Part shown: positions 1 through 44,351 of the stretch, one piece after another
Layout: every line of letters starts with the position of its first letter
Numbering within the stretch: position 1 is the first letter of the stretch
Notes under the pieces: generated by a model
What the model saw: only the letters and a program-made list of their open reading frames with translations
What the model was told of the DNA's origin: nothing
Database searches by the model: none
NCBI RefSeq assembly: GCF_000317615.1
Contig: NC_019780.1
Coordinates: 558,001-622,000 of the forward strand
Direction of reading: 5' to 3'
Source of the DNA: Dactylococcopsis salina PCC 8305
Lineage (GTDB): Bacteria > Cyanobacteriota > Cyanobacteriia > Cyanobacteriales > Rubidibacteraceae
Length of the DNA stretch: 64,000 nt
Translations under genes and position numbers: made by a program

Positions 1-767
1 GAACAGGAGGCGGCTTAACCTTTAGTCGTCCGTTAGCCCCTGATCCCTTTACTCGTGCTGATTGGAGAGTCTCGGCTGGTTTAAATTACGAACGGGTGCA
101 AATTGAAGACGATGATGGGGAGATTTCACCAGTGGATGAGTTTGGGAATCAATTGGCGTTTGATGAAAGTGGGAAGGATGATTTATTTGTCCTAGAATTA
201 GACGCAGTGCGCGATCGACGCAATCGTTCCAGTCAAACCACCAGTGGTTCGGTGTTGCGTTTAGGAGTCGATCAATCGATTCCTGTCGGTTCAGGAAATA
301 TCTTCTTTAATCGCATTCGAGGCAGTTACAGTTATTTTATCCCGGTTGACTTCACCAGCTTTAGTGAGGAAGGAGGAGAAACTCTTGCCTTTAATTTACA
401 AGCGGGAACCGTTCTTGGTGATTTACCTCCTTATGAAGCCTTTACTTTAGGAGGAAGTAATTCTGTGCGAGGCTATGAACAAGGTGATGTGGGGGCTGGA
501 CGGAGTTTTGTCCAAGCAACCGCCGAATATCGTTTCCCCATTTTCTCCATTGTTGGCGGTGCTTTATTTGTGGATGTGGGAACGGATTTAGGAACAGGAG
601 ACGATGTTCCAGGGGAACCGGCGGAGGTACGAGGTAAACCTGGCAGTGGTTTCGGTTATGGTGCTGGTGTGCGAGTACAATCCCCATTAGGGGCGATTCG
701 AGTTGATTTTGGCTTGAATGATGAGGGAGAGAGTCGCATTCATTTTGGGATTGGGGAAAAATTTTAG
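1..767 (+). CDS. Omp85/BamA-family outer membrane protein, C-terminal barrel (5' truncated by window)
   Basis: The frame is already open at the first bases of the window, so only the last ~255 residues are present. What is seen is a beta-barrel: alternating polar/apolar strands, a loop motif NSVRGYEQGD that matches the conserved VRG(F/Y) of the L6 loop of the Omp85 superfamily, and a C-terminal Phe (GIGEKF) as expected for a barrel targeting signature. Family knowledge: these proteins insert beta-barrels into the outer membrane; cyanobacteria carry several, related to Toc75. POTRA domains would lie upstream of the window. The downstream ABC exporter pair is 80 bp away and may be separate. BamA versus TamA or another paralogue cannot be decided from this part. 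Confidence 0.85.
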   Translation, partial: TGGGLTFSRPLAPDPFTRADWRVSAGLNYERVQIEDDDGEISPVDEFGNQLAFDESGKDDLFVLELDAVRDRRNRSSQTTSGSVLRLGVDQSIPVGSGNIFFNRIRGSYSYFIPVDFTSFSEEGGETLAFNLQAGTVLGDLPPYEAFTLGGSNSVRGYEQGDVGAGRSFVQATAEYRFPIFSIVGGALFVDVGTDLGTGDDVPGEPAEVRGKPGSGFGYGAGVRVQSPLGAIRVDFGLNDEGESRIHFGIGEKF

Positions 768-784
768 CAATGTACCATAGAAGG

Positions 785-810
785 TAGGGATGTGCTGTGG
801 CACGTCCCTA
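785..810. other. imperfect hairpin between Omp85 gene and ABC exporter
   Basis: Arms TAGGGATGTGC (785-795) and GCACGTCCCTA (800-810) pair with one G.T wobble around a 4-nt loop, 17 bp after the upstream stop. There is no T tract, so it is not a canonical terminator; it may stabilise a 3' end or be one of the window's palindromic repeats. Confidence 0.5.
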
Positions 811-846
811 GATAACATTGCCATGAAATCTGAGGATTAAACATTT

Positions 847-1872
847 ATGACACCTGCTGTTTCCATCGAACACTTGCAAAAATCCTATGGTGAGGTAGCA
901 GCAGTTAAAGATGTTACCTTTACTGTCCAACCTGGAGAAATCTTCGGGTTGCTGGGGCCCAACGGCGCGGGAAAGACAACCACCATACGCTGTTTATGTA
1001 CGTTAACGAAACCTGATCAAGGGCGTGTGACGGTGGGGGGTGTCTCTAGCATCGAACAACCGAAAGCGGCGCGACGGAAACTGGGTTATGTGGCGCAAGA
1101 GGTGGCTTTGGATAAGGTTCTCACTGGAGAAGAGTTATTACAACTCCAAGCTAGTTTGTATCATATCCCGAGATCGATCGCGCGGGAACGCATTCCCCAA
1201 TTGTTGAAGTTACTAGGATTAGAAGATTACGCTCACAAAAAAACAGGAACTTATTCTGGTGGCTTAAAAAAACGCCTCGATCTCGCGGCGGGATTACTTC
1301 ATCAACCCGATGTGTTGGTGTTAGATGAACCAACTGTTGGATTGGATATCGAAAGCCGTTTTGTGGTTTGGGATTTTCTGCGAAAGTTGCGGGAAGCGGG
1401 AACAACGGTTCTCCTGACTAGCCATTATTTAGAAGAGGTGGATGCTCTCGCCGATCGAGTTGCTATCATCGACCAAGGAGAAGTTATCGCCAGTGGTACG
1501 CCTAATGAGTTGAAAGACCGTTTAGGGGGCGATCGAGTTACCCTCCGCATCCGAGAGTTTACTCCCACAGCAGAAGCGGAAAAAGCAAAAACCCATCTCT
1601 CTAATTTAGATTTTGTTAGAGAAATTATTGTTAATCCCGCGCAGGGAAATTCCCTGAATTTGGTGGTAGAACCCAATAGTAATCCCATTGGTTCGATCGA
1701 GCAAACTCTCTCTAATTTAGACTTACCCACCTTCGGCATTTCTCAATCTCGTCCCAGTTTAGATGATGTTTATCTCGCCGCCACTGGACGCACTTTAATG
1801 GATGCGGAAATGGCAGCAGCGAGTAATCGTGATCTCAAAGCGGAGAAAAAACAAGCGATGAAAGGAAGTTAA
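847..1872 (+). CDS. ABC transporter ATP-binding protein, DrrA/CcmA-type exporter
   Basis: A 341-residue ATPase. Walker A GPNGAGKT at residues 37-44, Q-loop near 84, signature YSGGL at 136-140, Walker B VLVLDEP at 156-162 and H-loop His at about 193 are all intact. A C-terminal extension of about 100 residues after the ATPase domain is typical of DrrA (daunorubicin/antibiotic efflux) ATPases, which work with an ABC-2 permease. That permease follows 27 bp downstream with its own ribosome site (aggaga), so the two form an operon and a cytoplasmic-membrane exporter. Substrate unknown; lipids or polysaccharide are as likely as a drug. Confidence 0.9.
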   Translation: MTPAVSIEHLQKSYGEVAAVKDVTFTVQPGEIFGLLGPNGAGKTTTIRCLCTLTKPDQGRVTVGGVSSIEQPKAARRKLGYVAQEVALDKVLTGEELLQLQASLYHIPRSIARERIPQLLKLLGLEDYAHKKTGTYSGGLKKRLDLAAGLLHQPDVLVLDEPTVGLDIESRFVVWDFLRKLREAGTTVLLTSHYLEEVDALADRVAIIDQGEVIASGTPNELKDRLGGDRVTLRIREFTPTAEAEKAKTHLSNLDFVREIIVNPAQGNSLNLVVEPNSNPIGSIEQTLSNLDLPTFGISQSRPSLDDVYLAATGRTLMDAEMAAASNRDLKAEKKQAMKGS

Positions 1873-1899
1873 TCGAGAAAACATAGGAGAACACAAATT

Positions 1900-2778
1900 A
1901 TGAGTGATAGTATGACCCCTTTATCCCCAAATTCCATTGCGATCGAACAGGAAACCAGTTCGGAAAATCCCGTTGGTGAATTTTTCCAAGAAACGGGGGC
2001 TTTAACCAAACGTCTCTTTATCCAATTAAAACGTCGCCCTTCTACCCTCGTCGCTGGGATTATTCAACCGTTAATGTGGTTGATTTTGTTTGGTGCTTTG
2101 TTTCAGTATGCACCAGAAGGGTTGTTAGGAGAAGGGCTGAGTTATGGGAAGTTTCTCGCCCCTGGTGTGATTGTATTTACTGCTTTTTCGGGGGCTTTAA
2201 ATGCGGGACTTCCTGTGATGTTCGATCGAGAGTTTGGTTTTCTCAATCGTTTGCTAGTCGCGCCGTTGAGTTCTCGCTATTCGATCGTTGCGGCTTCTAC
2301 GATTTATATTATTAGTCTCAGCTTGTTACAAACCGCCTCGATCGTGGCGTTAAGTGCGGTAATCGGCGCTGGTTTACCCAGTTTAGCAGGTTTAGGCGCG
2401 ATCGCATTGATTGTGTTCTTAATTGTCGCTGGTGTCACTGCTTTAAGTCTCGGTTTAGCCTTTGCGTTACCCGGTCACATCGAACTGATTGCAGTGATCT
2501 TTGTGACGAATCTTCCCCTACTGTTTGCCAGTACCGCCCTTGCGCCTTTAAACTTTATGGCAGACTGGTTAAAAGTTGTGGCGAGTGTCAATCCTTTAAC
2601 CTACGCGATCGAACCAATTCGCTATATTTATCTCAACGGAGAATGGAGTCTCACCAGCACGGTTTTAGAAACATCCTGGTTTAACTTCTCCTTCGGCGCA
2701 TCCATTCTCGCTTTAGTTGCTTTTGATTTAGTAATTCTCTTTCTCATTCAGCCGCTACTGCGTCGTCGTTTCGCTTAG
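1900..2778 (+). CDS. ABC-2 type transporter permease
   Basis: A 292-residue integral membrane protein with a ~40-residue cytoplasmic N-terminus and about six hydrophobic segments, ending in a basic RRRFA tail. The segment SVNPLTYAIEPIRYIYL is the typical ABC-2 signature region (NP.TY..) before the last transmembrane helix. Partner of the preceding ATPase (27 bp apart, same strand); together they should form a homodimeric exporter. Cyanobacterial homologues are commonly annotated as DrrB-type permeases. Substrate not predictable. Confidence 0.88.
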   Translation: MSDSMTPLSPNSIAIEQETSSENPVGEFFQETGALTKRLFIQLKRRPSTLVAGIIQPLMWLILFGALFQYAPEGLLGEGLSYGKFLAPGVIVFTAFSGALNAGLPVMFDREFGFLNRLLVAPLSSRYSIVAASTIYIISLSLLQTASIVALSAVIGAGLPSLAGLGAIALIVFLIVAGVTALSLGLAFALPGHIELIAVIFVTNLPLLFASTALAPLNFMADWLKVVASVNPLTYAIEPIRYIYLNGEWSLTSTVLETSWFNFSFGASILALVAFDLVILFLIQPLLRRRFA

Positions 2779-2811
2779 TTTCTCAATTTCCGTAGGGGCG
2801 CTCGATCGCCC

Positions 2812-2919
2812 TTACCTGATCAAACGGAGTGCGATCGAATAGTGGCTAAAAGCTGCATCAAGTGTCACGATCGGAATGCTTTCAGCCAGAGATTGAGAGA
2901 TGATAAGACGATCGTAAAA
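2812..2919 (-). pseudogene. C-terminal remnant of a PIN-domain (VapC-like) toxin
   Basis: Read on the minus strand, 2919 to 2812 encodes YDRLIISQSLAESIPIVTL followed by DAAFSHY and ends in a stop at 2814-2812. This matches the C-terminal third of PIN-domain toxins (DRLLIAQAL..E...LVT.D..F..Y), including the conserved (F)DR(L/M)(I/L) helix and the last Asp of the acidic active site. The reading frame is cut off exactly where the 97-bp tandem repeat (2914 on) begins, so the N-terminal two thirds are gone. Identification rests on a ~33-residue match and is therefore moderate. Confidence 0.6.
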
Positions 2920-3187
2920 AGTTGATTAACTGTTCCCCCCTTACGAAGGGGGGTTAGGGGGGATTGATTGACAATTCTTATGGGATTGCTATAGCAGTTC
3001 TAATTCATTTGTAAAAAGTTGATAAACCGTTCCCCCCTTACGAAGGGGGGTTAGGGGGGATTGATTGACAATTCTTATGGGATTGCTATAGCAGTTCTAA
3101 TTCATTTGTAAAAAGTTGATAAACCGTTCCCCCCTTACGAAGGGGGGTTAGGGGGGATTGATTTACAATTCTTATGGGATTGCTATA
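2914..3187. repeat. 97-bp tandem repeat, about 2.8 copies
   Basis: Units start at 2914, 3011 and 3108, period 97 bp, nearly identical. Each contains a C6/G6 palindrome (TTCCCCCCTTACGAAGGGGGG followed by TTAGGGGGGATTGATT) and a TTCTTATGGGATTGCTATA tail. The palindromic core recurs singly at about 8036-8063, 37652-37685, 52057-52088, 57126-57172 (inside a gene) and 63862-63912, so this is a dispersed family that has been amplified here. No ORF is supported inside it. Confidence 0.9.
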
Positions 3188-3206
3188 TTACTGGTAACTG
3201 ATTGAT

Positions 3207-3301
3207 GTTGGGTTTCGTGTAGAGACGTTCCATGGAACGTCTCTACACAACCTACGTTTGACTGATTGTTGTTGGGTTTCGTATTCTCCACCCAACCTAC
3301 G
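3207..3301. repeat. two GTTGGGTTTCGT..CAACCTACG palindromic repeats, the first with a second palindrome in its loop
   Basis: Copy one runs 3207-3256. Its loop holds a perfect 28-bp palindrome at 3219-3246 (left arm GTAGAGACGTTCCA). Copy two at 3271-3300 has an ordinary short loop. Together with the 97-bp array this accounts for the whole gene-free stretch 2779-3315. Other copies of the GTTGGGT family are at 6893-6922, 8880-9060, 10951-10985, 20978-21320, 25499-25525, 31022-31050, 45755-45785 and 55244-55445. Confidence 0.85.
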
Positions 3302-3315
3302 TTTGACTTATCGCA

Positions 3316-3558
3316 ATGACAAAATCAGAATTATCAGCGCAAGAAAAGCAAGCAAAAATGAAAAACGAATCTATTACCAGAGTTACTTGGGATAAACTTG
3401 ATCAAATGGAAGACTTAACCGATTGGGAACGAGTGAATAACATGACTGAGGAGGAAATCGAGCAAAACGCACTTGATGATCCTGACAATCCTCCTCTAAC
3501 TGATGAAGAATTGAAATATCTTAAACCATTGTCAAATCCCCCCTTCAGAAAAACATGA
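3316..3558 (+). CDS. small acidic protein, resembles BrnA-like/orphan antitoxin tail
   Basis: 80 residues, very acidic, with no membrane segment. The core DWERVNNMTEEEIEQ followed by DPDNPPLTDEEL resembles the short linker found in many type II antitoxins of the BrnA/RHH kind (D..R...M.DEEI...A..DPD.PPL.D), but no BrnT toxin or DNA-binding domain is visible on either side. The ATG at 3316 has no clear ribosome site and sits immediately after a repeat, so the N-terminus may be repeat-derived or truncated; ATG at 3358 (MKNESI) is an alternative. Likely a real but orphan antitoxin-type gene; function not proven. Confidence 0.5.
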   Translation: MTKSELSAQEKQAKMKNESITRVTWDKLDQMEDLTDWERVNNMTEEEIEQNALDDPDNPPLTDEELKYLKPLSNPPFRKT

Positions 3559-3635
3559 AATCAAAAATTGTAACAGCGACATTTTTGGTAAAATAACTGA
3601 GGCTTAAACGTGCGTAAGACCTCCGTAAGAAAAAT

Positions 3636-6600
3636 ATGCCCCGTCGTACCGATTTAAAAAAAATTCTAGTGTTGGGTGCTGGTCCGATTATTATTGGACA
3701 AGCCTGTGAGTTTGACTATTCTGGAACGCAGGCTTGTAAAGCACTACGAGAAGAAGGTTATGAGGTGGTATTGGTCAATTCTAACCCCGCAACGATTATG
3801 ACCGATCCAGAAACGACGGAACGCACCTACATTGAACCGTTAACGGCTGAAATTGTGGAAAAGGTGATTGCGAAAGAACGTCCTGACGCGCTTCTACCGA
3901 CGATGGGAGGACAAACGGCGTTAAATGTGGCGGTGGAGTTGGCACAAGCTGGGATTTTGGAACGGTATCAGGTGGAGTTGATTGGGGCGAAATTACCAGC
4001 AATTACAATGGCAGAAGATCGCCAGTTGTTTAAGGAGGCAATGGCGCGGATTAATATTCCTGTGTGTCCATCAGGAATTGCTAGTAATTTAAAGCAAGCA
4101 CGGACGATCGCCCTAGAAGAAATTGGTAGCTATCCGATCATTATTCGTCCTGCTTATACTCTCGGCGGGAGTGGCGGCGGTATCGCTTACAATCAAGAGG
4201 AATTTGAAGAAAAAGCGCAGCAAGGACTGGATGCGAGTCCCGTTTCTCAGATTCTCATTGAGCGATCGTTGCTGGGTTGGAAAGAATACGAATTAGAGGT
4301 GATGCGTGATCTGGCGGATAATGTGGTGATTATTTGCTCGATCGAAAACCTTGATCCGATGGGAGTGCATACAGGAGACTCGATTACAGTCGCACCCGCG
4401 CAAACGCTCACCGATAAAGAATATCAACGCTTACGAGACTATTCTAAACAAATTATCCGTGAAATTGGAGTCGAAACAGGCGGATCAAATATTCAATTTG
4501 CCGTTAACCCAGTGGATGGGGAAGTGGTGGTAATTGAAATGAATCCTCGCGTGTCTCGTTCTTCTGCTTTAGCCTCGAAAGCGACGGGATTTCCTATTGC
4601 TAAATTTGCGGCGAAGTTAGCGGTGGGTTACACCCTCAATGAAATTCCCAACGACATCACGAAGCAAACTCCAGCTTCCTTTGAACCGACAATTGATTAT
4701 GTGGTGACAAAAATTCCTCGCTTCACCTTTGAAAAGTTCCCTGGCTCTAAACCAAACCTTAGCACACAAATGAAGTCAGTAGGGGAAGCCATGGCGATCG
4801 GGCGCACTTTCTGCGAATCCTTCCAAAAAGCACTACGTTCCCTCGAAACTGGGCGTTATGGGTGGGGATGCGACCAGAAGGAAAAATTGCCCTCTGTTAA
4901 TCAAATTCGCGCCCAATTACGCACCGCAACGCCCGATCGCATCTTTACGGTGCGCCACGCTTTCCAGTTGGGAATGACAACAGAGGAGATTCATCAGCTA
5001 ACGGCGATCGATCCTTGGTTCTTAAACCACTTATCTAGCATTATTGCAGGGGAAAAATTCCTGAAAGCAACCCCTCTCGAAGCCATCACCGCCGAACAAA
5101 TGCGAGAAATCAAACAACTGGGTTTCAGCGATCCACAAATTGCCTTCGCTACGGAAACCACAGAAGCCGCAGTGGCAAAAAAACGGGGCGATCTCAACAT
5201 TTTTCCCGTTTATAAAATGGTGGATACCTGCGCCGCAGAATTTGAAGCGTTTACTCCCTATTATTATTCCACCTATGAGGAGGGAGAATCAGAGGTGATT
5301 CCTTCTGAAAAGCCAAAAGTGATGATTTTAGGCGGTGGACCGAATCGCATTGGACAAGGAATTGAATTTGATTATTGCTGTTGTCATGCGTCTTTTTCCC
5401 TGTCCGATGCGGGTTATGAGACGATTATGGTGAACTCGAATCCCGAAACGGTTTCCACCGATTACGATACCAGTGATCGATTGTATTTTGAACCCTTAAC
5501 ACGGGAAGATGTTTTTAATATCATCGCTGTGGAACGTCCGCAAGGGATTATTATTCAGTTTGGGGGACAAACGCCGTTAAAACTAGCGGTTTCTCTAGAA
5601 GAATATCTCGACCAACATCAAGATACGATTCCTACTAAGATTTGGGGAACGTCTCCCGACTCGATCGATATCGCAGAAGACAGAGAACGATTTGAGCAAA
5701 TTTTACGGCAATTAGTGATTGATCAGCCTCCCAATGGACTGGCGAGAAGTTATGAGGAAGCGTTGGTGATCGCAGGAAATATTGGCTATCCCGTCGTTGT
5801 GCGTCCGTCTTATGTGTTGGGGGGTCGGGCGATGGAAATCGTCTATTCTGACCAAGAGTTAGAACATTATATGAGTTTTGCGGTGCAAGTAGAACCCGAA
5901 CATCCGATTCTGATTGATAAGTTTTTAGAAAACGCGATCGAAGTGGATGTAGATGCGATCGCAGATCAACAAGGAAATGTGGTCATTGGCGGTATTATGG
6001 AACACATTGAACAAGCGGGGATTCATTCTGGGGACTCAGCTTGTTCTCTCCCCTATGTCTCTCTCAGTGAAACTGTGGTCAATACTATCCGCAAAGGTAC
6101 AGAACAACTCGCAAAAGCGCTGAAAGTTGTGGGATTAATGAATATCCAATTTGCGGTTCAAGGAGAAACAGTTTACATTTTAGAAGCCAACCCCCGCGCT
6201 TCTCGAACCGTTCCCTTTGTCTCTAAAGCCACTGGTGTTCCCCTTGCGAAAATTGCCTCGCTGGTGATGTCTGGACAAACCCTACCTGAGTTAAACTTTA
6301 CCCAAGAACCGCAACCGCGACATATTGCGGTAAAAGAGGCAGTTTTACCCTTTGAAAAATTCCCCGAAACCGATGTTATTCTCGGTCCAGAAATGCGTTC
6401 TACTGGGGAAGTGATGGGAATCGACTATGATTTTGGGAAAGCGTTTGCCAAAGCAGAATTAGCCGCTGGTCAACGTTTACCCCTATCAGGAACGGTTTTT
6501 GTTTCCACGAACGATCGAGATAAAAAAGCGGTGATTCCTGTGATTAAAGAATTTATAGCATTAGGATTTAATATTATCGCCACTGAAGGCACAAAAGTCG

Positions 6601-12217: not shown

Positions 12218-13186
12218 TTAAATTTTAGGAGAGGGTAAAATTCCTAAAAGAAGAAGCCACCAAGGTACTTTAAAATCAGGAACGAGCCAAGAAGCCTGTC
12301 TTAAGGCTGGAATCGCTGCGGGAAGAATAAATCGCAACGATCGCAAAGAAACAGGACGATTCCCGTCTCGATCGAGCAAATTATACCGTTGAGCGACTTC
12401 GGCGACAATTTGCACTTTTCCCGTGAGAGATTGTAAATTGGTTTCTGCGGCTAAAGCAGCAATTACTCGTCCCGTAAAAAGGGGAGTTTCCCAATTATAT
12501 CGATCGCGCAAGACAGAAGTTTGCGGATCAATGTCTTCTTGGCTCATTTGATCAGCAAATCGTGAAATCGCTTCTGTTCCAACAATACCTGGCCACAGGG
12601 CGATCGAAGTAACATTTTTTGATTTTAATTCCTGTGCCATTTCTGCGGCTAATCGATCGCAAGCGGCTTTTCCTACGCCATAAGCAACCCCAAAAATGGG
12701 AGACATTCCTCCCCAAGAGGAAATTGTACAAATTAATCCTTGTTGACGCTGACTCATTAACCGTGCTGCGAATAAACTCGCTATGTAATGACTCCGTAGC
12801 CCTACGTTATTCACCGCATCCCATAAGTCGGGTTCGTTTTCCCAAAATGGTTGTCCCGAGGCTTGGGCGATCGAGCTTACTCCTGCAAATACATTATTGA
12901 CTAATACATCAAGCCTGCCCTTTTGCTCTCGATCGATGCGCTGAAACAACTGTCGGACTTGTTCATCATCACTATGATCCACCTGTACGGGAAAACAAAC
13001 CCCACCGGCTGCTTCTACCGCCGTTTGAGTGTCGGTGAGCGTTCCTGATTCCTCTCCAGAAGGGGAAAGGGTGCGACCTGTAATATAAACCGTTGCGCCA
13101 GCTTCTCCTAAGCCAATGGCAATTCCCTTCCCAATTCCCCGTGTCGCACCAGTGACTAGAGCGATTTTCCCTGCAAGTGTTTTCAT
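12218..13186 (-). CDS. short-chain dehydrogenase/reductase with C-terminal hydrophobic extension (DHRS1-like)
   Basis: 322 residues, about 70 longer than a classical SDR. Rossmann motif TGATRGIGKG (residues 13-22), NNVFAG in place of NNAG, catalytic Ser in CTISSWGG and YGVGKAACDR (YxxxK). The overall pattern resembles the DHRS1 subgroup. After the catalytic domain the tail ends PWWLLLLGILPSP, a short hydrophobic segment that may anchor it to a membrane. Its start is only 61 bp from the IsrB-like gene's stop, so its promoter region coincides with the end of that element. Confidence 0.85.
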   Translation of the reverse strand: MKTLAGKIALVTGATRGIGKGIAIGLGEAGATVYITGRTLSPSGEESGTLTDTQTAVEAAGGVCFPVQVDHSDDEQVRQLFQRIDREQKGRLDVLVNNVFAGVSSIAQASGQPFWENEPDLWDAVNNVGLRSHYIASLFAARLMSQRQQGLICTISSWGGMSPIFGVAYGVGKAACDRLAAEMAQELKSKNVTSIALWPGIVGTEAISRFADQMSQEDIDPQTSVLRDRYNWETPLFTGRVIAALAAETNLQSLTGKVQIVAEVAQRYNLLDRDGNRPVSLRSLRFILPAAIPALRQASWLVPDFKVPWWLLLLGILPSPKI

Positions 13187-13205
13187 CTATTCTTCGTGCT
13201 GGAGA

Positions 13206-13257
13206 CTCCCAATATAATCGGTAACTGAGCGCGGTCGTTGTTCTGATTTATTGGGAG
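13206..13257. repeat. hairpin at the 3' end of the isrB-like element
   Basis: Arms CTCCCAATATAATC (13206-13219) and GATTTATTGGGAG (13245-13257) pair with one bulge and overlap the isrB stop codon. A strong subterminal hairpin just after the nuclease gene is what IS200/IS605-related elements carry at their right end; here that role is inferred. Confidence 0.55.
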
Positions 13258-14346
13258 AGGAAAGCACGTCCTCCATTTAATGTGTTTACAATTAAGTTAG
13301 TGTTCCGTTTCAAAAGTTGAGTCTTTTTGGCTGAAAATTGTCCCAGTCTTTTCCAATCAAAGTCAGAAACTGAGACTTGAGTTTTGGTGTCTCCTGAAAC
13401 CCAGCCTTGATATTTGATTCCTTTCCTTTCTGTCTCGACATAATCTCCCTTACGGAAGCCATGTCGAGTTGTTGTGCCTCCATATTTCCGTCTCACCCCA
13501 CCTGTAGTAGGAATCATTAATTGAAGCTGACGGCGACTAACTGGAGGTCTTTTAATTACTGAGAAAGGGGCATTTGTTATCTCAACACTTCCTTCAAACC
13601 ATCCTTTGTCTCCTTTTAAATATTTGTACTTCAAGAACTCGTGGGAAGCTAAAGCAACTCCATCAACGGCATGAGTGGCAGGGGTTTGATTAGACTTATT
13701 TCGGTCTTTCTCTAACCCAAGAAGTTCTCTTCTTGCTGAAGTTTCCCACCCAAAAAGCGTGGTGACAAGAGCAATGCTCGGCAGCCACTGTTCTGTCATT
13801 ACCTTTTGTCCTACCATCACTGGGGAGAATCCCTGATCACCTTTCGCTTTAACGATTTCGTAGATGATAGAAGAGATGGGAAAAAGTTGGGATAACTCTT
13901 TGACCACACGATATTCAAGCTGTCGATTCGCTTTAATACGCTTGAGGAAGTTTGTGGCAACGACGATTATTAAACCGTTTCTGACGGTGAGAACGTTGGT
14001 CAAAGGGTAATTTACGATTAATTCGTCTTCCTCTTCTTCCACGACGCATCATCGCTCTGGTTTCCATGTGGTTTTTAACCCGTTGGAATGGTAACTCTAG
14101 ATGGGCGGTGAATAAAGTAGCTTTAGATGATTGAACTCCAATCCCTGAGTAATGCTTTCCTGGGTCAATTCCCACCGCTACAGGTTGGATTTCTTCTCCA
14201 GATTCAATGGTTAACTGAACTGCGAAGAAATGTAAGTCGTTTTTGTAAATCACCGCCTTTCCTTCTTTAAGCCAACGTCTAGCACGACTAGCCTTAGTAG
14301 GCATTAATGGTTTTCCGTTTTTTGATCGAACTGGTACACGAGACAT
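13248..14346 (-). pseudogene. isrB: IsrB-like RuvC nuclease (RRXRR/PLMP protein), one-base frameshift
   Basis: Minus strand from ATG 14346. Frame one encodes MSRVPVRSKNGKPLMPTKAS: the N-terminal PLMP domain of IscB/IsrB. Then RuvC-I GIDPGKHYSGIG, then an Arg-rich bridge helix (MRRGRRGRRINRK). The frame stops after HKLPQAY, but a +1 shift at about 13935-13941 continues the family sequence IKANRQLEYRVVKEL, RuvC-II IIYEIVKAKGDQGFSPVMVG, RuvC-III THAVDGVALASHEF and the C-terminal domain (RRQLQLMIPTTGGVRRKYGG). Only ~50 residues separate RuvC-II and -III, so there is no HNH domain: IsrB rather than IscB. Catalytic D, E and H/D residues are all present. Together ~365 aa. The frameshift makes it a pseudogene unless it is bypassed or an assembly error. 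Confidence 0.85.
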
Positions 14347-14500
14347 GGAGATAATCCTTTCGCTCTGGAAGTTTTTAACCTCTTCGCCCACCTTGACCAA
14401 GATGCGCGGAATGCGCCGCCGCGTTCCTGCCCGAATCGAATTCGGGCAGGGTCGGCGGTCCCTTCTTAAGGCAACCCTCCAACGAGTTTTAGAGATAATC
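14347..14500 (-). ncRNA. putative IsrB omegaRNA
   Basis: The 170 bases upstream of isrB (minus strand) hold no ORF but strong structure: an 11-bp stem CCTGCCCGAAT/ATTCGGGCAGG (14426-14436 with 14440-14450, 3-nt loop), extended by CCGCCG (14416-14421) with CGGCGG (14453-14458), then a GCGC..GCGC mini-hairpin (14404-14416) and an A-rich run AGGTTAAAAACTTCCAGAG leading to the start codon. Known IscB/IsrB systems encode their guide RNA directly 5' of the nuclease gene on the same strand, guide at the RNA's 5' end. Position and structure fit; the exact 5' end and guide are not resolvable, and a group II intron abuts at about 14519. Confidence 0.5.
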
Positions 14501-14586
14501 CGAACTAGAGGAGATCGGGTAAGGTTCGAGAGTCGCCTCTCTCCCCTCCCCTAAGAACCGTACGTGACAGTTTCCCATCATACGGC

Positions 14587-15969
14587 TCAAGCCTTACTTC
14601 CAGCCTTCGTCTTGGTTTTTGAACTGTGTACCTGCTTATGACACGCTTTGTGTAAGTGGACTAGATTCTCAGCGTCGTCTGAGCCACCGTCTTTCGCAGG
14701 TACTATATGGTGAGTCTCGATTTCTTCTCCGTTATAAAGGCTATCACCACAGACAGGACATTTATGCTCTTGCATCTTGGCTACTTGCTCGTATTTAGAA
14801 CCTTTTGCCCATTTTTGTTTTCCTATCTTGAGGCTTCGATTTTGCCAGTAATCCCGAAGTGAGGGGTCATCAGGGCTTGCTGTCCCTTTGACCTTCACGT
14901 GCCTTACTATGGGTGTACTACCAATGTCATAGAGGATAAAGAGTGTATCCTTATTTCCACGACCAGTCCCTTTACACATGAAAGTCCAATGATTCCCTTT
15001 GTATGAACCGAAATATCTATCTCGTACCCACATTTTGGACTTTAGGGGGTGTCGCCGACAGCACCATTTCCAGAGGTATTGCCACACTCGATGTGAGATG
15101 TAACTAAAGGTTTCTTTGCTAACCACCCCTCTGTAGTAGTTAGCAAAACCTCGGAGAAGTGGATTTAGGACTTTAATGACTTCTTCCTGAGTACAGGCTT
15201 TCATTTTGCTTAGAGTTTCCCCAATCTTTTTACAGAAGGCAAGTACCTTCTTTTTCTGGGGCTTAATCAATAGTTTGCCACCGTAGTGACGTAAGTTGAA
15301 CCCAAGAAAGTCAAAACCTTCTTCCATTGGGACGATTCTCGTCTTCTCCGAGCTTATTTCCAGACCTCGTTCTAACATCCACTGCTTTATCTGGTCAAGT
15401 ATGTGTTCTAGGCTTTCCTTATCCTTAGAAGTAACCACGAAGTCATCCGCATATCGAATAACTCCGAGCTTCGGATTGACTGACTTAATAAAATCCTCCA
15501 ACCCGTGTAACCCAATGTTTGCTAGTAGAGGGCTAATCACTCCACCTTGTGGTGTTCCCATGTCGGTCGGATTCAGTACACCCTTATCGAGATAACCAGT
15601 TTTTAACCATCCTTCAATTAAATCCCCACGTGGAACAGACTCAATTGCTATCAGGATGGATTCATGGGCAATGTTGTCGAAGAATCCTTTAATATCAGCG
15701 TCTAGAACCCAAGTGTCACGTCCTCCTTGAACTCTCGTAAAACATTGAGCTATGGCATCGTGACAACTCCGACCGCATCTAAACCCATAAGAATTAGGCT
15801 CAAATACAGCTTCCCATTGGGGTTCCAGTATATTCTTAACCATTGCTTGTGCGACTCTATCCCGCACGGTAGGGATTCCGAGGGGACGTTTCTTCCCGTT
15901 GGGTTTGGGTAGGTAAACTCGTCGTGTCGAGTTAGCTTTGGGCATTTCCCAACTGTTCACAAGTTTCAC
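14587..15969 (-). CDS. group II intron reverse transcriptase/maturase, N-terminally truncated, with HNH
   Basis: 460 residues; begins inside the region just before RT motif 1-2 (RRVYLPKPNGKKRPLGIP), so ~60-90 N-terminal residues are missing. The remainder is complete: palm motif [10 protein letters not shown], thumb/domain X (FDFLGFNLRHYGG ... RGFANYYRGVVSKETF) and C-terminal HNH endonuclease (CPVCGDSLYNGEEIETHHIV ... HLHKACHKQVH). Family role: intron splicing and retrohoming. Start at GTG 15969 is simply the first usable codon; a strong AAAGGAGG lies ~20 nt upstream at the junction with the other RT fragment. Different sequence type from the 41110-43011 RT. Confidence 0.85.
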   Translation of the reverse strand: MKLVNSWEMPKANSTRRVYLPKPNGKKRPLGIPTVRDRVAQAMVKNILEPQWEAVFEPNSYGFRCGRSCHDAIAQCFTRVQGGRDTWVLDADIKGFFDNIAHESILIAIESVPRGDLIEGWLKTGYLDKGVLNPTDMGTPQGGVISPLLANIGLHGLEDFIKSVNPKLGVIRYADDFVVTSKDKESLEHILDQIKQWMLERGLEISSEKTRIVPMEEGFDFLGFNLRHYGGKLLIKPQKKKVLAFCKKIGETLSKMKACTQEEVIKVLNPLLRGFANYYRGVVSKETFSYISHRVWQYLWKWCCRRHPLKSKMWVRDRYFGSYKGNHWTFMCKGTGRGNKDTLFILYDIGSTPIVRHVKVKGTASPDDPSLRDYWQNRSLKIGKQKWAKGSKYEQVAKMQEHKCPVCGDSLYNGEEIETHHIVPAKDGGSDDAENLVHLHKACHKQVHSSKTKTKAGSKA

Positions 15970-15989
15970 TCGCTCGTTTGGGGTATTTA

Positions 15990-16946
15990 TTACCTCCTTT
16001 CAATCAGCATTTTAGCTTGTTGGATGATGGATTTTTCCTTGTGGAGAACAACAAAATCATCTGCATACCTTACGATGGATATACTCCGACGGTTTACCGA
16101 CTTTCCTCTCCCTTTCCAGGTTTCAGCCCATTGTTTAATGTACTCCTCAAGTCCATGCAGGGCGATGTTTGCCAATAGAGGACTTATCACCCCTCCTTGT
16201 GGTGTTCCCTCATTTGTTGGAAACCAATCGCCTCTATCCAAGACCCCCGATTTCAACCAAGCTCGAATCTGTCGAGCCATAGTCGGGGTTGTATTTAATT
16301 TTTCTAAGAGAACACTGTGGTTTATACGGTCGAAGCATTTGGAAATATCAGCGTCTAAAACCCATTTATCTTTTAGACTTATGGATTTGAAAATTGCTTT
16401 TTCCGCATCATGGCAAGAACGTCCTGGTCTGAATCCGTACGAATTCGGCTCGAATTTTGCTTCCCATTCTGGCTCCAAAGCCAATTTGAGAAGTGCCTGT
16501 CTCGCACGGTCTTCCATTACTGGAATGCCCAGACCCCGCTTTTCTGCGCGACCTGGTTTTGGAATCCAGACCCGTCTTAAGGATTTACCCTTCCCTGTAA
16601 GGGTTAGGCTTTCAGCAAGGCTCAACCGTTGTTTAGGACTTAGGCTTTTTATACCATCTATCCCTGCGGTATTTTTTCCCTTGTTATCCTGCGAAATGCG
16701 CCGTACTGCTAAGAGCTTGGCACACCAAGACCGTAACAATAATCTTTGAAGTTTGTGAACTTTAGCCACGTCACCACTTTGAGAAGCTCGATAAATCCGT
16801 TTTTGGAGCTTAAATACTCTTAATTCCACCTCTCGCCAGTCAATCTGACTCCACTCTGTTTCTGCCATGAGATTCAACCCAAAGCCTAACCAGAGCATTA
16901 AGAAGGTTTTTGTCCGAGCATCACATTTATACTTCATTGAGTTCAT
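15990..16946 (-). pseudogene. group II intron reverse transcriptase, N-terminal half only
   Basis: 318 residues, almost the same as the first 318 of the 633-residue RT at 41110-43011 (both contain [17 protein letters not shown]-type and [14 protein letters not shown] motifs). It ends abruptly 20 residues after YADD with ...MLIERR and a stop, losing thumb, domain X and HNH. The break lies 20 bp from the start of the other RT fragment, marking the recombination joint between two introns. Confidence 0.88.
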
Positions 16947-17395
16947 AACTTTACCCTACTTCACTTATTATCTTCGTAATCTAAAGTGGCTACGTCTGCT
17001 TATCCTCCTTGTTAAAGAAGGCTTTTGCTTCTTAGCCAATCCTGCCCTCGTCCTACCTGACAAATGAGCCAGAGATTGCATCCCGACAGACTACTTGAGA
17101 AATCGACCTTCCCCAAGAGTATGAACGAAGGTTATTTCGTTTCTGATTTCCATTCATTGAGACTTTAGCCCCCTACTATCCTCCGAGTAAATCTATAGGT
17201 GTGATATAAGCTACTTGATACTTATATCATTTTACTCTGGTCTTATTTCGACCCTTGCGACAGCCTTTACGCAAGTTCCTAATTACGAAGGTTCAAGCAT
17301 AGGTTTGTTGACTAGACATAGCCTCTTGCTAGGGATTTACCAGTTTAGGCTTCCAGCAGTGACCCCATTTAACCCTGCTTCATCCTCCAATCTCC

Positions 17396-17421
17396 CGTTA
17401 TACCCGAAGGGTTAACGGGAG
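17396..17421. other. hairpin at the 5' edge of the chimeric intron
   Basis: CTCCCGTTATACCC.. pairs with GGGTTAACGGGAG. It lies where similarity with the other intron's 5' RNA ends. The 17422-17556 remainder holds only the leader of the next gene. Confidence 0.5.
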
Positions 17422-17556
17422 TCGTTGAAAATCTGTTAGTCTTGGCGTGATCAAACGCTTTCCAAGATAGCAGTCTTCTCCTCTTGAAGCGAAATCAAAT
17501 TGGTTCGATAATATGATGGGTGAAGACGCTTAACCTGATTACTCTCTTTTAAAACC

Positions 17557-40163: not shown

Positions 40164-41025
40164 TTGAGTTCTCCATGTTTTGAAAAACATGGATTCCAAA
40201 CGTTGCTACGAAGCGAGATTGAATCTCGCAATCGAAGCGTTTACGATATGATTTCTTCAGCGTACTGAAAACATCATATCGCTTGGGAACACTCAAACAT
40301 TCCCGACATACCTCGGCTAGAGTTAACCCTAGCTGTGTACTTACCTTTCTTAAGATATTCGCCGCTCCATTACAGTCAGCATTGATTAGCCTACCTTTAC
40401 GAGTCTGATATAAACCTCTTTTCACTCTCTTTCCTGATGCTTTCCAGTTAGCAGGTTTCTCACCGCCGAACACTGGTAAATCATCATTATCCAAAAACGA
40501 GCTACGAGAAGTGTAACTTTCCTCGGTTTCGGTAAAATTGATTCCTACTGATTCTGCCAACTCTTTAATTCGGTTCTTGAGTCTAGCAGTGGGGATTTGT
40601 ACAAAGTTTTGGTTATTTTTTGAACCCAGATTGCAATTGGTTTTAACTCCTTGTCCCCAACCGAAAACAATGTTACCGATACGATGGTTAAGACAATAGT
40701 TAACGATAAACCGTGCTGTCTTATTTACAGCGTCACACATGAAACAGGATCGTTTATGGGTTAACTCGTCTAAGTATTCATCCCAATAAAAGTCTGTGTT
40801 CCTGAGCGGGAGTTGAGCCTGTCGAAACTTGTCGAAGGACTTCCCTTGTTTATACTTAGCAACTGTTTTGTTATATCTAGCATTCACACCCTTAATTTTA
40901 TGTCCGTCAACAATGAAACTCCTTCCGAGAGTGGAGACACAAGTCAGAAGATTATTTACCCCTGGGTCACACCCCAAAGCCTGAGAATAATCTAAATCGG
41001 TCGCTACTTTTTCTTCCACCCTGTA
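40153..41025 (-). pseudogene. tnpB: TnpB 3' exon (RuvC half) interrupted by a group II intron
   Basis: 288 residues open from the intron 3' joint. It contains RuvC-I LGCDPGVNNLLT, the VFGWGQGVKTNCNLGSKNNQ segment, TEESYTSRSSFLDND (candidate relocated catalytic Glu in this TnpB clade) and RuvC-III INADCNGAANILRK. Zinc-finger Cys pairs are absent, as in that clade. A spliced message joining 43686 to 41025 would give ELV-YRVEEK in frame. Hairpin CCATGTTTT-GA-AAAACATGG at 40173-40192 lies in the last codons and probably marks the element's right end. Confidence 0.85.
40173..40192. repeat. perfect hairpin at the right end of the intron-split tnpB element
   Basis: Nine-bp arms CCATGTTTT/AAAACATGG with a 2-nt loop. 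A similar-sized perfect hairpin (CCATCCGTTT/AAACGGATGG, 44531-44551) lies at the other side, 4.36 kb away. Confidence 0.7.
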
Positions 41026-41109
41026 GTTAACCTAAGCCAAGAGGTCGCCCTCTTGACTCGGCTTCAGAACGGTACGTGAAACTTTCGCTTCATACCGCTC
41101 CTCTCCAAA

Positions 41110-43011
41110 CTACGCTGTGTTAACAGCACTTCCCTGCTTAGTTTCCGATTTACGACTTTTCTTGGTTTTCTTTTGGGTTTTCTTTTGCCCCTTATTATCC
41201 ATTTGTCGTTGTCGGTCTTCGGCAGTTTTCTGATGGTGACAATGACGATGAAGTAACTGTAAATTCTTGTAATGGTCTTTGCCCCCTTCAGCTTTAGGGA
41301 CGATGTGGTCAACCTCCACTACATCTTCACCCTTGATGTAAAGTCCACAACGGGCGCATTTGCCTTTCTGACGCTTCATCAGGGTAGCAACCCGTTTCGG
41401 TGTGCCAGGGTATTCACCCCGACGTTTACTCCAGTACCGCCAATCTCCATCGTAAGGAGACTTTGTACCCTCGATTTTTATATGTCTTTCAATTGGTGTC
41501 CATGCGTGTTTCCACAGTTCGTGCGTACCCGCAATAGGAGAATTTGGTGTATCAGAAGGAGTTGAGAAGACCCATTTGTCTTTTCTATCTTCTTTTGCTA
41601 AATCTTTCTCCTTAGTCAAATGAAAGTATCTTTCTTCACACCATTTGAGGGTTTTGTTAGAGTGACGGCTTTTTATCCAGCGACGTAGTTTGTTATAGAC
41701 CATGTAATCTATGTGTGCAAATGTTTCCTTAGAGCAGACTGTTTTGTGATAGTTGCACCATCCCCTAATTATGGGGTTAAGTTTATCAATGATTACCTCT
41801 TGGGATTTACCTTTCATTGAATCTAATACCGAAACAATCTTTTCGTAATGTGTTTTGATACTTTTGTCGCTTGGTTTGATTATTGTCTTGAATCCGAGTA
41901 ACTTGCCATTTGTATTCTTTCCTGTATGGTTCTTCCCGACTTCATACTGTCGGATGTTCCATCCCAGAAAATCAAACCCTGCTCTTTCTTTCTCAGAATT
42001 ATGCAAGGTGTGACATATTCTCGTCTTGCTCTCGCTTAATTCTAAGCCTAAGCCATGTAACCACTGTTCAATAAGCGTTTTCGCCTGTTGGATGATGGAT
42101 TTATCCTTGTGGAGAACAACGAAATCATCTGCATACCTGATAAGAGAGATACTTTTACTATTAGCTTGTTTATTCCCTTTCCAAGTTTCAGCCCATTGTC
42201 TTATGTTTTCCTCAAGTCCATGCAGGGCGATGTTTGCCAATAGAGGACTTATCACCCCTCCTTGTGGTGTTCCCTCATTTGTTGGAAACCAATCGCCTCT
42301 ATCCAAGACCCCCGATTTCAACCAAGCTCGAATTTGTCGAGCCATAGTCGGGGTTGTATTTAATTTTCTTAAGAGAACATTGTGGTTTATACGGTCGAAA
42401 CATTTAGATATGTCAGCATCCAAAACCCATTTGGCTTTAGTTTTAATCGTCTTATAAATTGCCTCTTCCGCATCATGGCAAGAGCGTCCTGGTCTAAATC
42501 CGTACGAATTAGGCTCGAATTTTGCCTCCCATTCAGGCTCTAAAGCCAATTTGAGAAGTGCCTGCCTCGCACGGTCTTCCATTACTGGAATACCCAAGCC
42601 ACGTTTTTCTTTGCGACCTGGTTTTGGAATCCAGACCCGTCTTAAGGATTTACCCTTCCCTGTAAGAGTCAGGTTTTCAGCAAGGTTTAATCTTTGCTTA
42701 GGACTTAGGGTTTTTACACCATCTATCCCCGCAGTATTCTTACCCTGGTTATCCTGCGAAATGCGCCGTACCGCTAAGAGTTTGGCACACCAAGACCGTA
42801 ACAATAATCTTTGGAGTTTGTGAACTTTAGCCACGTCACCACTTAGAGAAGCTCGATAAATCCGTTTTTGGAGCTTAAACACCCGTATTTCAATCTCCTT
42901 CCAGTCAATCTGACTCCACTCCGTCTCTGCCATGAGATTAAACCCAAAGCCTAACCAGAGCATTAAAAAGGTCTTTGTCCGAGCATCACATTTATACCTG
43001 ATTTGGTTCAT
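41110..43011 (-). CDS. ltrA: group II intron reverse transcriptase/maturase with HNH endonuclease
   Basis: 633 residues, complete. RT0-RT7 span about 50-380: [52 protein letters not shown] and the catalytic [13 protein letters not shown] near residue 295-307. Domain X follows (FDFLGWNIRQYEVG ... RGWCNYHKTVCSKETFAHID). The C-terminal En domain is HNH: CARCGLYIKGEDVVEVDHIV, then LLHRHCHHQKT. The tail is very Lys-rich. Role: reverse transcription, RNA splicing and target cleavage for retrohoming. The first half is nearly the same as the fragment at 15990-16946. Confidence 0.95.
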   Translation of the reverse strand: MNQIRYKCDARTKTFLMLWLGFGFNLMAETEWSQIDWKEIEIRVFKLQKRIYRASLSGDVAKVHKLQRLLLRSWCAKLLAVRRISQDNQGKNTAGIDGVKTLSPKQRLNLAENLTLTGKGKSLRRVWIPKPGRKEKRGLGIPVMEDRARQALLKLALEPEWEAKFEPNSYGFRPGRSCHDAEEAIYKTIKTKAKWVLDADISKCFDRINHNVLLRKLNTTPTMARQIRAWLKSGVLDRGDWFPTNEGTPQGGVISPLLANIALHGLEENIRQWAETWKGNKQANSKSISLIRYADDFVVLHKDKSIIQQAKTLIEQWLHGLGLELSESKTRICHTLHNSEKERAGFDFLGWNIRQYEVGKNHTGKNTNGKLLGFKTIIKPSDKSIKTHYEKIVSVLDSMKGKSQEVIIDKLNPIIRGWCNYHKTVCSKETFAHIDYMVYNKLRRWIKSRHSNKTLKWCEERYFHLTKEKDLAKEDRKDKWVFSTPSDTPNSPIAGTHELWKHAWTPIERHIKIEGTKSPYDGDWRYWSKRRGEYPGTPKRVATLMKRQKGKCARCGLYIKGEDVVEVDHIVPKAEGGKDHYKNLQLLHRHCHHQKTAEDRQRQMDNKGQKKTQKKTKKSRKSETKQGSAVNTA

Positions 43012-43684
43012 AACATTACTCTACTTCACTTATTATCTTCGTAATCTAAAGTGGATACGTCTGCTTATCCTTCCTGTTGTAGAAGGCATTTGCTTCTTAT
43101 CCAATCCTTCCCTCGTTCTACCCGACAAATGAGTCAGAGATTGCGTCCCGACAGACTACTTGAGAAATCGACCTTTCCAAGAGTATGAACGAGGGTTACT
43201 TCGTTCCTGATTTCCATTGATTAAGACCTTAGCCCCCTACTTTCCACCGAGCAAAATTGAAGGTGTGATATGAACTTCGCGAAATCCATATCTTCTTGCT
43301 TTGAACTTATTTTGTTCCCTGCGGTAGCCTTTACGCAGGTTGCGGATGACGAATGGTTCAAACATAGGTTCGTTGACTAGGCATCGCCTTTTGCTAGGGA
43401 TTTACCAGTTTAGGCTTCCAGCAGTGACCCCATTTAACCCTGCTTCATCCTCAAGTAGTCAACTCTATAGATGAGGGTTATGCTGTCCTCTCACACCCTG
43501 AGAGGGATGGACTTGAATTAACGGGTTATACCCTACCTGTTTCTTAGCCGAAGCTCCACAGGCTCTCACCAACATGGAATTCAAGTTGTCAAGGTTCTGT
43601 ACCCCGAAGGGTTCTTTACCAAGCTCTGGTTTATACTCCGCAGTTCGAGTGAACTACAGTGATTTCACCAGAAACGAATCGCAC
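43012..43684 (-). ncRNA. 5' RNA domains (I-III) of the group II intron
   Basis: No ORF. 43012-43455 matches 16947-17390 in long blocks (for example GGGATTTACCAGTTTAGGCT), which identifies both as intron RNA. 43456-43684 is only present here and carries the 5' splice end. Not resolved into individual domains. Confidence 0.75.
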
Positions 43685-43685
43685 C

Positions 43686-44297
43686 AACGAGTTCCGCCCA
43701 AAGTTTTCCATGCTGAGGAAGGATTCTGATCTCAGAGATGTTAGTATCACCAATATAACTAACCGAGGGAATAGAAAATTCCTCTTCTTTTCCTTTTTCC
43801 CAATACTGCGTAATGACTCGACTCATTGGTAAGAACCAAGAACCTTCTTCATGGTTAAAACGAAGCCCATCAGAAGGAAAAGTAAAACTACATAGACCTC
43901 CTTTTGTTCTATAACCAGGGAGTTTTGGTTTATGGTCTAGTTCTCCATCAAACCACATTTCTAGCAGTTCGTTATAAGACTTAAACGCCTCTTCGACTGA
44001 CTTTAACAGTTGCTGACCTTGCTGTCCACCTAACCATTGGTAATGAGGATTTTCCTTAAAGTCTTTACAAAGCTGAGAATAACTAACTTTTACCTTTTTA
44101 TCCTTGAATTGACGACGAAAACAGTCATCCTTATCGAAAAACTCTCTGATTCCACAACTGGAAAAGTGAGCTTGTCTAATTTGATACACCGCCGTGTTCC
44201 ATAAGTTATTGGCTTCGTGGCACAGAAACACCAAAACATCCCTAGTTTGGTCAGTGATGTTGCCTGTAAGAAGGATTTTTGTCGTCCTATATGACAT
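43686..44297 (-). pseudogene. tnpB: TnpB 5' exon (N-terminal half)
   Basis: 204 codons up to the intron joint; the frame then runs 6 codons into the intron (GAIRFW, stop). N-terminus MSYRTTKILLTGNITDQTRD, followed by the helical WED/REC-type region of TnpB with EEAFKSYNELLEMWFDGELD and PKLPGYRTKGG, the conserved lead-in to RuvC-I. Unless the intron splices, no functional TnpB is made. Divergent from the small RHH gene with a 54-bp gap. Confidence 0.85.
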
Positions 44298-44351
44298 TGC
44301 TTAAAGTGTGATCGTTTAGATATACTCTAAGTGTAACTCCAATAATAGAAT

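What the first reader, a model, noticed from the sequence alone, without database searches (positions are those of the whole stretch)
13206..14519. IsrB-type OMEGA locus: HNH-less RuvC protein plus structured leader
Seen: PLMP, RuvC-I, Arg-rich bridge helix, RuvC-II, RuvC-III and the C-terminal domain of the IscB/IsrB family, with no room for HNH, and a strongly structured non-coding 170-nt leader directly upstream. Known: IsrB is a rare RNA-guided nickase with its omegaRNA encoded just 5' of the gene. Inferred: this is one such locus, with a one-base frameshift between bridge helix and RuvC-II and all catalytic residues kept, so a recent loss, a recoded gene or an assembly error.
Basis: partly seen in the sequence, partly recalled or inferred. 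Interest (0 to 1): 0.72.

Follow-up and report, generated by a model that had tools for sequence, protein, structure and literature searches.

The report
Dead IsrB locus split by introns
The window holds a decayed copy of an RNA-guided DNA-nicking transposon gene (IsrB) whose guide-RNA gene was invaded by two self-splicing introns; intact relatives show such introns repeatedly sitting inside IsrB guide-RNA genes and IsrB genes, so that the guide or enzyme could be made only after splicing.

Summary
The IsrB call is right: PLMP, RuvC-I, bridge helix, RuvC-II, RuvC-III, no HNH, full-length match to the solved IsrB 8DMB, and a one-base frameshift at about 13933-13945. The locus reading is incomplete. 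The "leader" is only the 3' fragment of the omegaRNA gene. Its first six bases (14519-14514) are the end of a group II intron (D5/D6 14514-14590). The omegaRNA's first hairpin lies 2.9 kb upstream (17388-17429), beyond fused remnants of two different group II introns. Three paralogs in the same genome are frame-intact. Two (c1, c2) have uninterrupted leaders; in c3 a complete 2.66-kb intron with a 635-aa reverse transcriptase sits exactly in the omegaRNA. Window copy c0 is therefore a dead derivative, not recoding or an assembly error. The pattern recurs: 13 of about 115 IsrB matches in 46 cyanobacterial genomes, plus two further loci, carry group II introns, all in sense orientation, at nine positions (six in omegaRNA/leader, three in isrB). 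About 0.28 was expected in the first sample, where 8 elements were seen. In silico exon joining restores leader length, 36-40 of 40 conserved pairs, and full-length IsrB frames. Splicing itself is inferred. Group II introns in IS200-family elements have a precedent; I found no report of introns in an omegaRNA gene.

The parts
17388..17429 (-). 5' end of the omegaRNA gene: P1 5' strand (TTCAA) and hairpin SL1
   Evidence: 42-bp identity with the start of the uninterrupted omegaRNA of paralog c2; 95% over the same 42 bp with c3
15999..17387 (-). 5'-truncated remnant of group II intron A, with the N-terminal part of its reverse transcriptase (ORF 15990-16946)
   Evidence: 93.8% identical to the complete intron in the omegaRNA of paralog c3; RVT_N and RVT_1; sister to the c3 intron in the RT tree, support 97/81
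14514..15998 (-). 3' part of a different group II intron (B): RT C-terminus, maturase and HNH domains (ORF 14587-15969), D5 and D6, 3' end ...CCCGAT
   Evidence: RF00029 62.8 bits at 14514-14590; RVT_1, GIIM, HNH; D5/D6 identical to intact B-type introns elsewhere in the genome
14344..14513 (-). 3' fragment of the omegaRNA / leader of isrB, starting CTCCTCTAGTTCGG
   Evidence: aligned with c1, c2, c3 leaders; covariance model finds model positions 89-159 only
14405..14457 (-). extra GC-rich hairpin inside the leader
   Evidence: present in c0 and c1, absent from c2, c3
13933..14343 (-). isrB 5' part: PLMP, RuvC-I, bridge helix; ends at a stop after the frameshift
13248..13940 (-). isrB 3' part: RuvC-II, RuvC-III, C-terminal domain; stop at 13250-13248
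   Evidence: 87-90% identical to three intact paralogs
13187..13247 (-). right end of the IsrB element (...TCTCCAGCACGAAGAATAG), abutting ATGA at 13186-13183, the start codon of the next gene
   Evidence: similar end followed by ATGA in c0, c1, c2, c3

Best explanation
This is a dead IsrB element of a cyanobacterium. IsrB elements encode an RNA-guided nickase and, just 5' of it, its omegaRNA with the guide at the element's left edge. Mobile group II introns insert into this element at a few short conserved motifs. An A-type intron entered the omegaRNA, as it did in paralog c3 between ACTTG and AATAGCC. A B-type intron entered about 45 nt further on, before CTCCTC. A deletion then fused the 5' half of A with the 3' half of B and removed the omegaRNA between them, a second deletion removed the A 5' splice site, and isrB took a frameshift. 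In living copies such as c3, the intron with its own maturase is expected to splice out and restore the omegaRNA or, for introns inside isrB, the reading frame, so that the nickase-guide complex depends on splicing. Shown here: anatomy, boundaries, empty sites, restored structure and frames, recurrence, movement of introns between elements. Inferred: that splicing takes place and that the restored complexes are active.
For: Paralogs c1 and c2 have uninterrupted leaders; c3 has GTGCG...GGTAAC (2662 nt) between CTTG and AATAG, where c1 reads CTTGAATAG. The same arrangement with exact junctions occurs in L117, L079, L119, L118 (leader) and L115, L145 (isrB codon 65^66, GIDPGK(N/H)^Y(S/T)GIG), and in five of six IsrB elements of G264. 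Joined leaders are 212-229 nt against 208-250 nt for nearly all intron-free ones, with 279 nt in c1 because of its extra hairpin; they keep 36-40 of 40 pairs, mean 37.8 against 36.8 intron-free, and P1 covaries. Joined isrB frames in L115, L145 and L217 run 357-385 aa, whereas unspliced they stop at 33-82 aa. L215 and L219 have 98.6% identical leaders and isrB, one empty and one with an intron at GGATTA^TCTC, while introns up to 99% identical sit in IsrB elements only about 80% alike. The putative EBS1 loop pairs with the intron's own 5' exon over 4-8 bp in six introns. Expected introns in 84 IsrB matches 0.28 against 8 elements, P about 1e-9, and 1e-4 even at five times the density; G264 expected 0.04, observed 6 introns. 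D5/D6 is found by Rfam next to nearly all of them; L145 is the exception.
Against: No RNA data: splicing and omegaRNA function are not shown. The A-type 5' junction of the window copy is deleted, so its insertion site is inferred from c3. Some intron-bearing relatives are decaying: L145 RT frameshifted and no D5 over the Rfam cut-off, L146 5' splice site mutated, L079 RT fragmentary, L119 pseudoknot strand changed and isrB broken, L218 first 32 codons lost. Bacterial group II introns are tolerated in mobile DNA in general, so part of the enrichment may be survivorship. The G264 elements share one genome and are not independent.
Confidence: 0.83

Rival explanations
1. One reading: an ordinary IsrB locus with a complete omegaRNA leader directly upstream and only a recent frameshift, recoding or assembly error.
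For: IsrB identity and catalytic motifs; the 3' half of the leader is conserved.
Against: Group II D5/D6 ends at 14514 inside the proposed leader; the omegaRNA 5' hairpin lies at 17388-17429; the covariance model finds well under half of the omegaRNA; paralogs are free of the frameshift.
Confidence: 0.05
2. Chance neighbourhood: group II introns, 35 in this genome, happen to lie next to IsrB, or IsrB inserted beside an intron.
For: The genome is intron-rich. In L124 an intron ends just upstream of the omegaRNA and is not inside it.
Against: Both halves of the omegaRNA or of isrB flank the intron and join exactly; empty sites exist in c1, L047 and L215; frequency far above expectation and all in sense orientation.
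Confidence: 0.03
3. The introns are not spliced to any useful end: IsrB elements are simply safe harbours (dispensable mobile DNA), and intron-bearing copies are dead or dying.
For: c0, L119, L145, L146, L079 and L218 show damage in the intron or element; A-type introns also sit in TnpB and in other introns.
Against: c3, L115, L117, L216 and L217 keep long isrB frames (after joining where needed), and 5 of 5 joined leaders keep the conserved pairs; c3 keeps a 635-aa RT.
Confidence: 0.35
4. IsrB plus intron is a composite element that transposes as one unit, so that the recurrence reflects few insertion events.
For: L214 and L216 share intron and isrB at 96-98% identity.
Against: At least nine different insertion positions; IsrB-nested introns do not form one clade (at least 4 changes forced); L215 and L219 differ by the intron, and introns up to 99% alike sit in IsrB elements about 80% alike.
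Confidence: 0.1

Closest known systems
OMEGA nickase IsrB with its omegaRNA (PMC9581776: DtIsrB and five orthologues, including CwIsrB and DsIsrB)
   Same: Protein homologous over its length to 8DMB; 5' omegaRNA with P1, SL1, SL2 and an SL2-SL5 pseudoknot; all four own-genome copies abut ATGA, in agreement with the NTG TAM measured for CwIsrB and DsIsrB among others.
   Different: The omegaRNA gene, leader or isrB is interrupted by group II introns; the window copy is dead.
[quoted passage not shown]
   Same: Group II introns multiplying by targeting a conserved site in a multicopy IS200-type element of a cyanobacterium.
   Different: There the host site was not described as a guide-RNA gene or IsrB; here introns, most with their own RT, enter at least nine sites, most of them in the omegaRNA/leader.
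IStrons (group I intron joined to an insertion sequence, PMC4227781)
   Same: Self-splicing intron combined with a transposon of the IS605/IS607 kind.
   Different: Group I intron as part of the element, restoring the host gene; here a separate group II intron sits inside the element and splicing would restore the element's own guide RNA or nickase.
HEARO RNA (Rfam RF02033)
   Same: 5' non-coding RNA of the IscB/IsrB kind.
   Different: The Rfam model does not match these IsrB leaders, although it detects a HEARO in locus L209 of another cyanobacterium.

Membership tests
IsrB (OMEGA nickase) | PLMP/RRXRR domain, split RuvC with bridge helix, C-terminal domain, no HNH | tested here: met
   RRXRR, full-length match to 8DMB, no HNH in isrB; in c0 only when the two frames are read together
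IsrB (OMEGA nickase) | intact uninterrupted protein in this copy | tested here: not met
   frameshift at about 13933-13945; three paralogs intact
IsrB (OMEGA nickase) | structured omegaRNA encoded directly 5' of the gene | tested here: not met
   met for the family (40 pairs, 36 with compensatory changes; SL2-SL5 pseudoknot) and for c1, c2 and joined c3; not met for the window copy, which has 71 of 181 model positions
IsrB (OMEGA nickase) | TAM beside the element | tested here: met
   ATGA directly after the right end in 4 of 4 own-genome copies; NTG TAM reported in PMC9581776
IsrB (OMEGA nickase) | omegaRNA-guided nicking | not testable with these tools
   needs biochemistry
Group II intron (mobile, with RT) | GUGYG 5' end, D5/D6, AY 3' end | tested here: met
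   c3: GTGCG, D5/D6 51.5 bits...AAC; window: D5/D6 of B intact, 5' ends of both introns deleted
Group II intron (mobile, with RT) | RT, maturase and endonuclease domains | tested here: met
   window: RVT_N, RVT_1, GIIM and HNH spread over two partial ORFs; c3: one ORF of about 635 aa
Group II intron (mobile, with RT) | self-splicing | not testable with these tools
   inferred from exact junctions and restored exons
HEARO (RF02033) | match to the Rfam covariance model | tested here: not met
   no hit up to E 10 for five IsrB loci

The most novel reading that the evidence does not exclude
Group II introns have a standing relationship with OMEGA elements (IsrB, also TnpB) in cyanobacteria: they home to conserved omegaRNA and RuvC-I motifs and turn production of the guide RNA or nickase into a splicing-dependent step, so that intron retention or splicing switches the nickase off or on. 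It would be the reverse of the IStron arrangement.
Probability: 0.3. Interest if true: 0.82.

Novelty: new variant of a known kind. Interest (0 to 1): 0.6.

Why it matters
If splicing is confirmed, this would be a natural case of a guide RNA that must be assembled by intron removal. It links two mobile RNA machines directly: a retroelement ribozyme and the IsrB branch near the ancestry of Cas9. It makes testable how OMEGA elements survive parasites of their own, and whether splicing gates their nicking activity. G264, with five of six IsrB elements invaded and 98.6% identical empty and filled elements, is a ready natural experiment. It also warns that omegaRNA annotation taken as 'the 200-300 nt upstream of the gene' fails when an intron sits in between.

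Tried and rejected
Rfam HEARO for the leader: no match. Recoding or assembly error for the frameshift: rejected because of intact paralogs and independent damage to the omegaRNA. The 53-nt hairpin as a genome repeat: only in c0 and c1. L124: intron next to, not inside, the omegaRNA. IsrB-specific intron clade: rejected. EBS1-IBS1 pairing for the TnpB introns and the exact TnpB exon frame: not resolved. A direct sequence identity of L215 against joined L219 in a script was spoiled by an indel; the BLAST value (98.6%) is used. Model-score comparison of joined against unjoined leaders was not possible because only held loci can be searched; pair counts were used, and these lean towards the structure because joined rows were part of the alignment that gave the consensus. 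Structure prediction was not run, because the sequence match to 8DMB covers the protein.

Full report
What is there. On the minus strand two overlapping frames (14343-13933 and 13940-13248) give one IsrB protein broken by a frameshift. Pfam finds RRXRR/PLMP. The intact paralog c3 matches the solved IsrB 8DMB over residues 3-350, E 6e-49. No HNH lies in isrB; the HNH found nearby belongs to the reverse transcriptase ORF upstream.

The leader is not what it seemed. Rfam finds group II intron domains 5/6 at 14514-14590, and two partial RT ORFs fill 14587-16946. The genome holds four IsrB copies. In c1 and c2 the leader is continuous; the c2 leader's start, hairpin CTCCCG...CGGGAG, occurs in the window 2.9 kb upstream at 17388-17429. 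In c3 the leader is split between CTTG and AATAGCC by a complete 2662-nt intron (GTGCG...AAC) with an RT of about 635 aa. c1 reads CTTGAATAGCC there: it is the empty site. The window copy holds a 5'-truncated copy of the same A-type intron (93.8%), fused to the 3' part of another, B-type intron whose D5/D6 is identical to intact B introns elsewhere. The omegaRNA between the two sites is gone. The simplest history is two insertions, two deletions and one frameshift; the order is inferred.

The leader is a real omegaRNA. Thirty-two intron-free leaders from many cyanobacteria, plus five joined ones, align end to end. RNAalifold gives 40 pairs, 36 with compensatory changes. P1 covaries (UUCAA/UUGAA, GUCAA/UUGAC, GUCAC/GUGAC). 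An SL2-loop/SL5 pseudoknot, described for DtIsrB, CwIsrB and DsIsrB in PMC9581776, pairs better within a sequence than with shuffled partners, 0 of 300. A covariance model finds c1, c2, c3 and relatives at 99-181 bits, but the window at 23.6 bits, positions 89-159 only. In L117 and L079 the model finds the two omegaRNA parts on either side of the intron.

The phenomenon recurs. Of 84 IsrB matches in 33 genomes (some matches are fragments of one element), 8 elements carry introns: c0, c3, L115, L117, L118, L119, L145, L146. Of 31 further elements, 5 do, all in G264. Symploca L079 and a second omegaRNA of G054 (L279) add two. In the omegaRNA/leader the sites are: P1 3' strand (c3), SL2 loop on the pseudoknot strand (L117, L079, L279), the loop before CTCCTC (c0), the 3' tail (L119), GGATTA^TCTC (L214, L216, L219) and TCTC^TAAAAATG (L118). 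In isrB they are codons 28/29 (L217), 65/66 (L115, L145) and about 67 (L146). All are sense. Genome-wide D5 density predicts 0.28 introns in the first sample and 0.04 in G264. The leader, a sixth of the element, has six of nine sites (binomial P 0.001).

Joining the exons restores the host. Joined leaders are 212-229 nt and keep 36-40 of 40 pairs. Joined isrB frames of L115, L145 and L217 are full length, against 33-82 aa unspliced. Putative EBS1 loops pair with the introns' own 5' exons (L146 8 bp, L145 6, L119 6, c3 5, L115 5 of 6, L117 4; the pairings of c3, L115 and L117 were read by eye from the alignment in that call). In G264, L215 is the empty version of L219 (98.6% identical leader and isrB), and introns up to 99% identical sit in IsrB elements only about 80% alike: introns moved between elements. 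L218 looks like a recombinant of introns at two sites that lost the first 32 codons, a parallel to the collapse seen in the window.

Interpretation. The best-supported reading is repeated homing of diverse group II introns (they do not form one clade) into multicopy IsrB elements, with splicing expected to restore the guide RNA or nickase; the window copy is a collapsed casualty. Splicing is inferred. Whether the relationship is regulatory or only tolerated is open. Group II introns in an IS200-family element were reported in T. elongatus (PMC2882425), so the general habit is known. Searches of the held literature gave no report of introns in an omegaRNA gene; subscription papers are largely not held, so this is not proof of novelty.

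Noticed in passing
window 40200-44314 (-): A TnpB gene is split by an A-type group II intron (about 41026-43680; 3' exon just before the RuvC-I motif). A second TnpB with an identical RT stretch sits at C1:3,060,500-3,066,500 (L174). The exon frame at the joint was not resolved.
   Followed up: partly
L266, L277 (G264): Introns whose 3' exon is TnpB (L277 by tblastn, L266 judged by eye), so OMEGA nucleases other than IsrB are hosts too.
   Followed up: partly
L036, L037, L039 (own genome): A-type introns share a 3' exon that looks like domain I of another group II intron: nested introns.
   Followed up: no
L214 coordinates 492-4857: Two copies of the same intron stand in tandem at one IsrB leader site.
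   Followed up: partly
window 13183-13186 and loci L011, L012: Three of four own-genome IsrB elements abut the ATGA start codon of the next gene (in c2 between secD and secF).
   Followed up: no
window 14405-14457 (-) and c1: A 53-nt GC-rich hairpin is inserted at one place of the omegaRNA in two of four copies; L054 has another insert at about the same place.
   Followed up: no
L215 (isrB on -), 4033-4240 (+): A second, complete omegaRNA match on the opposite strand next to an IsrB locus.
   Followed up: no
L157: isrB is frameshifted at codons 59-64, close to the intron site at codon 65/66; possibly a scar.
   Followed up: no
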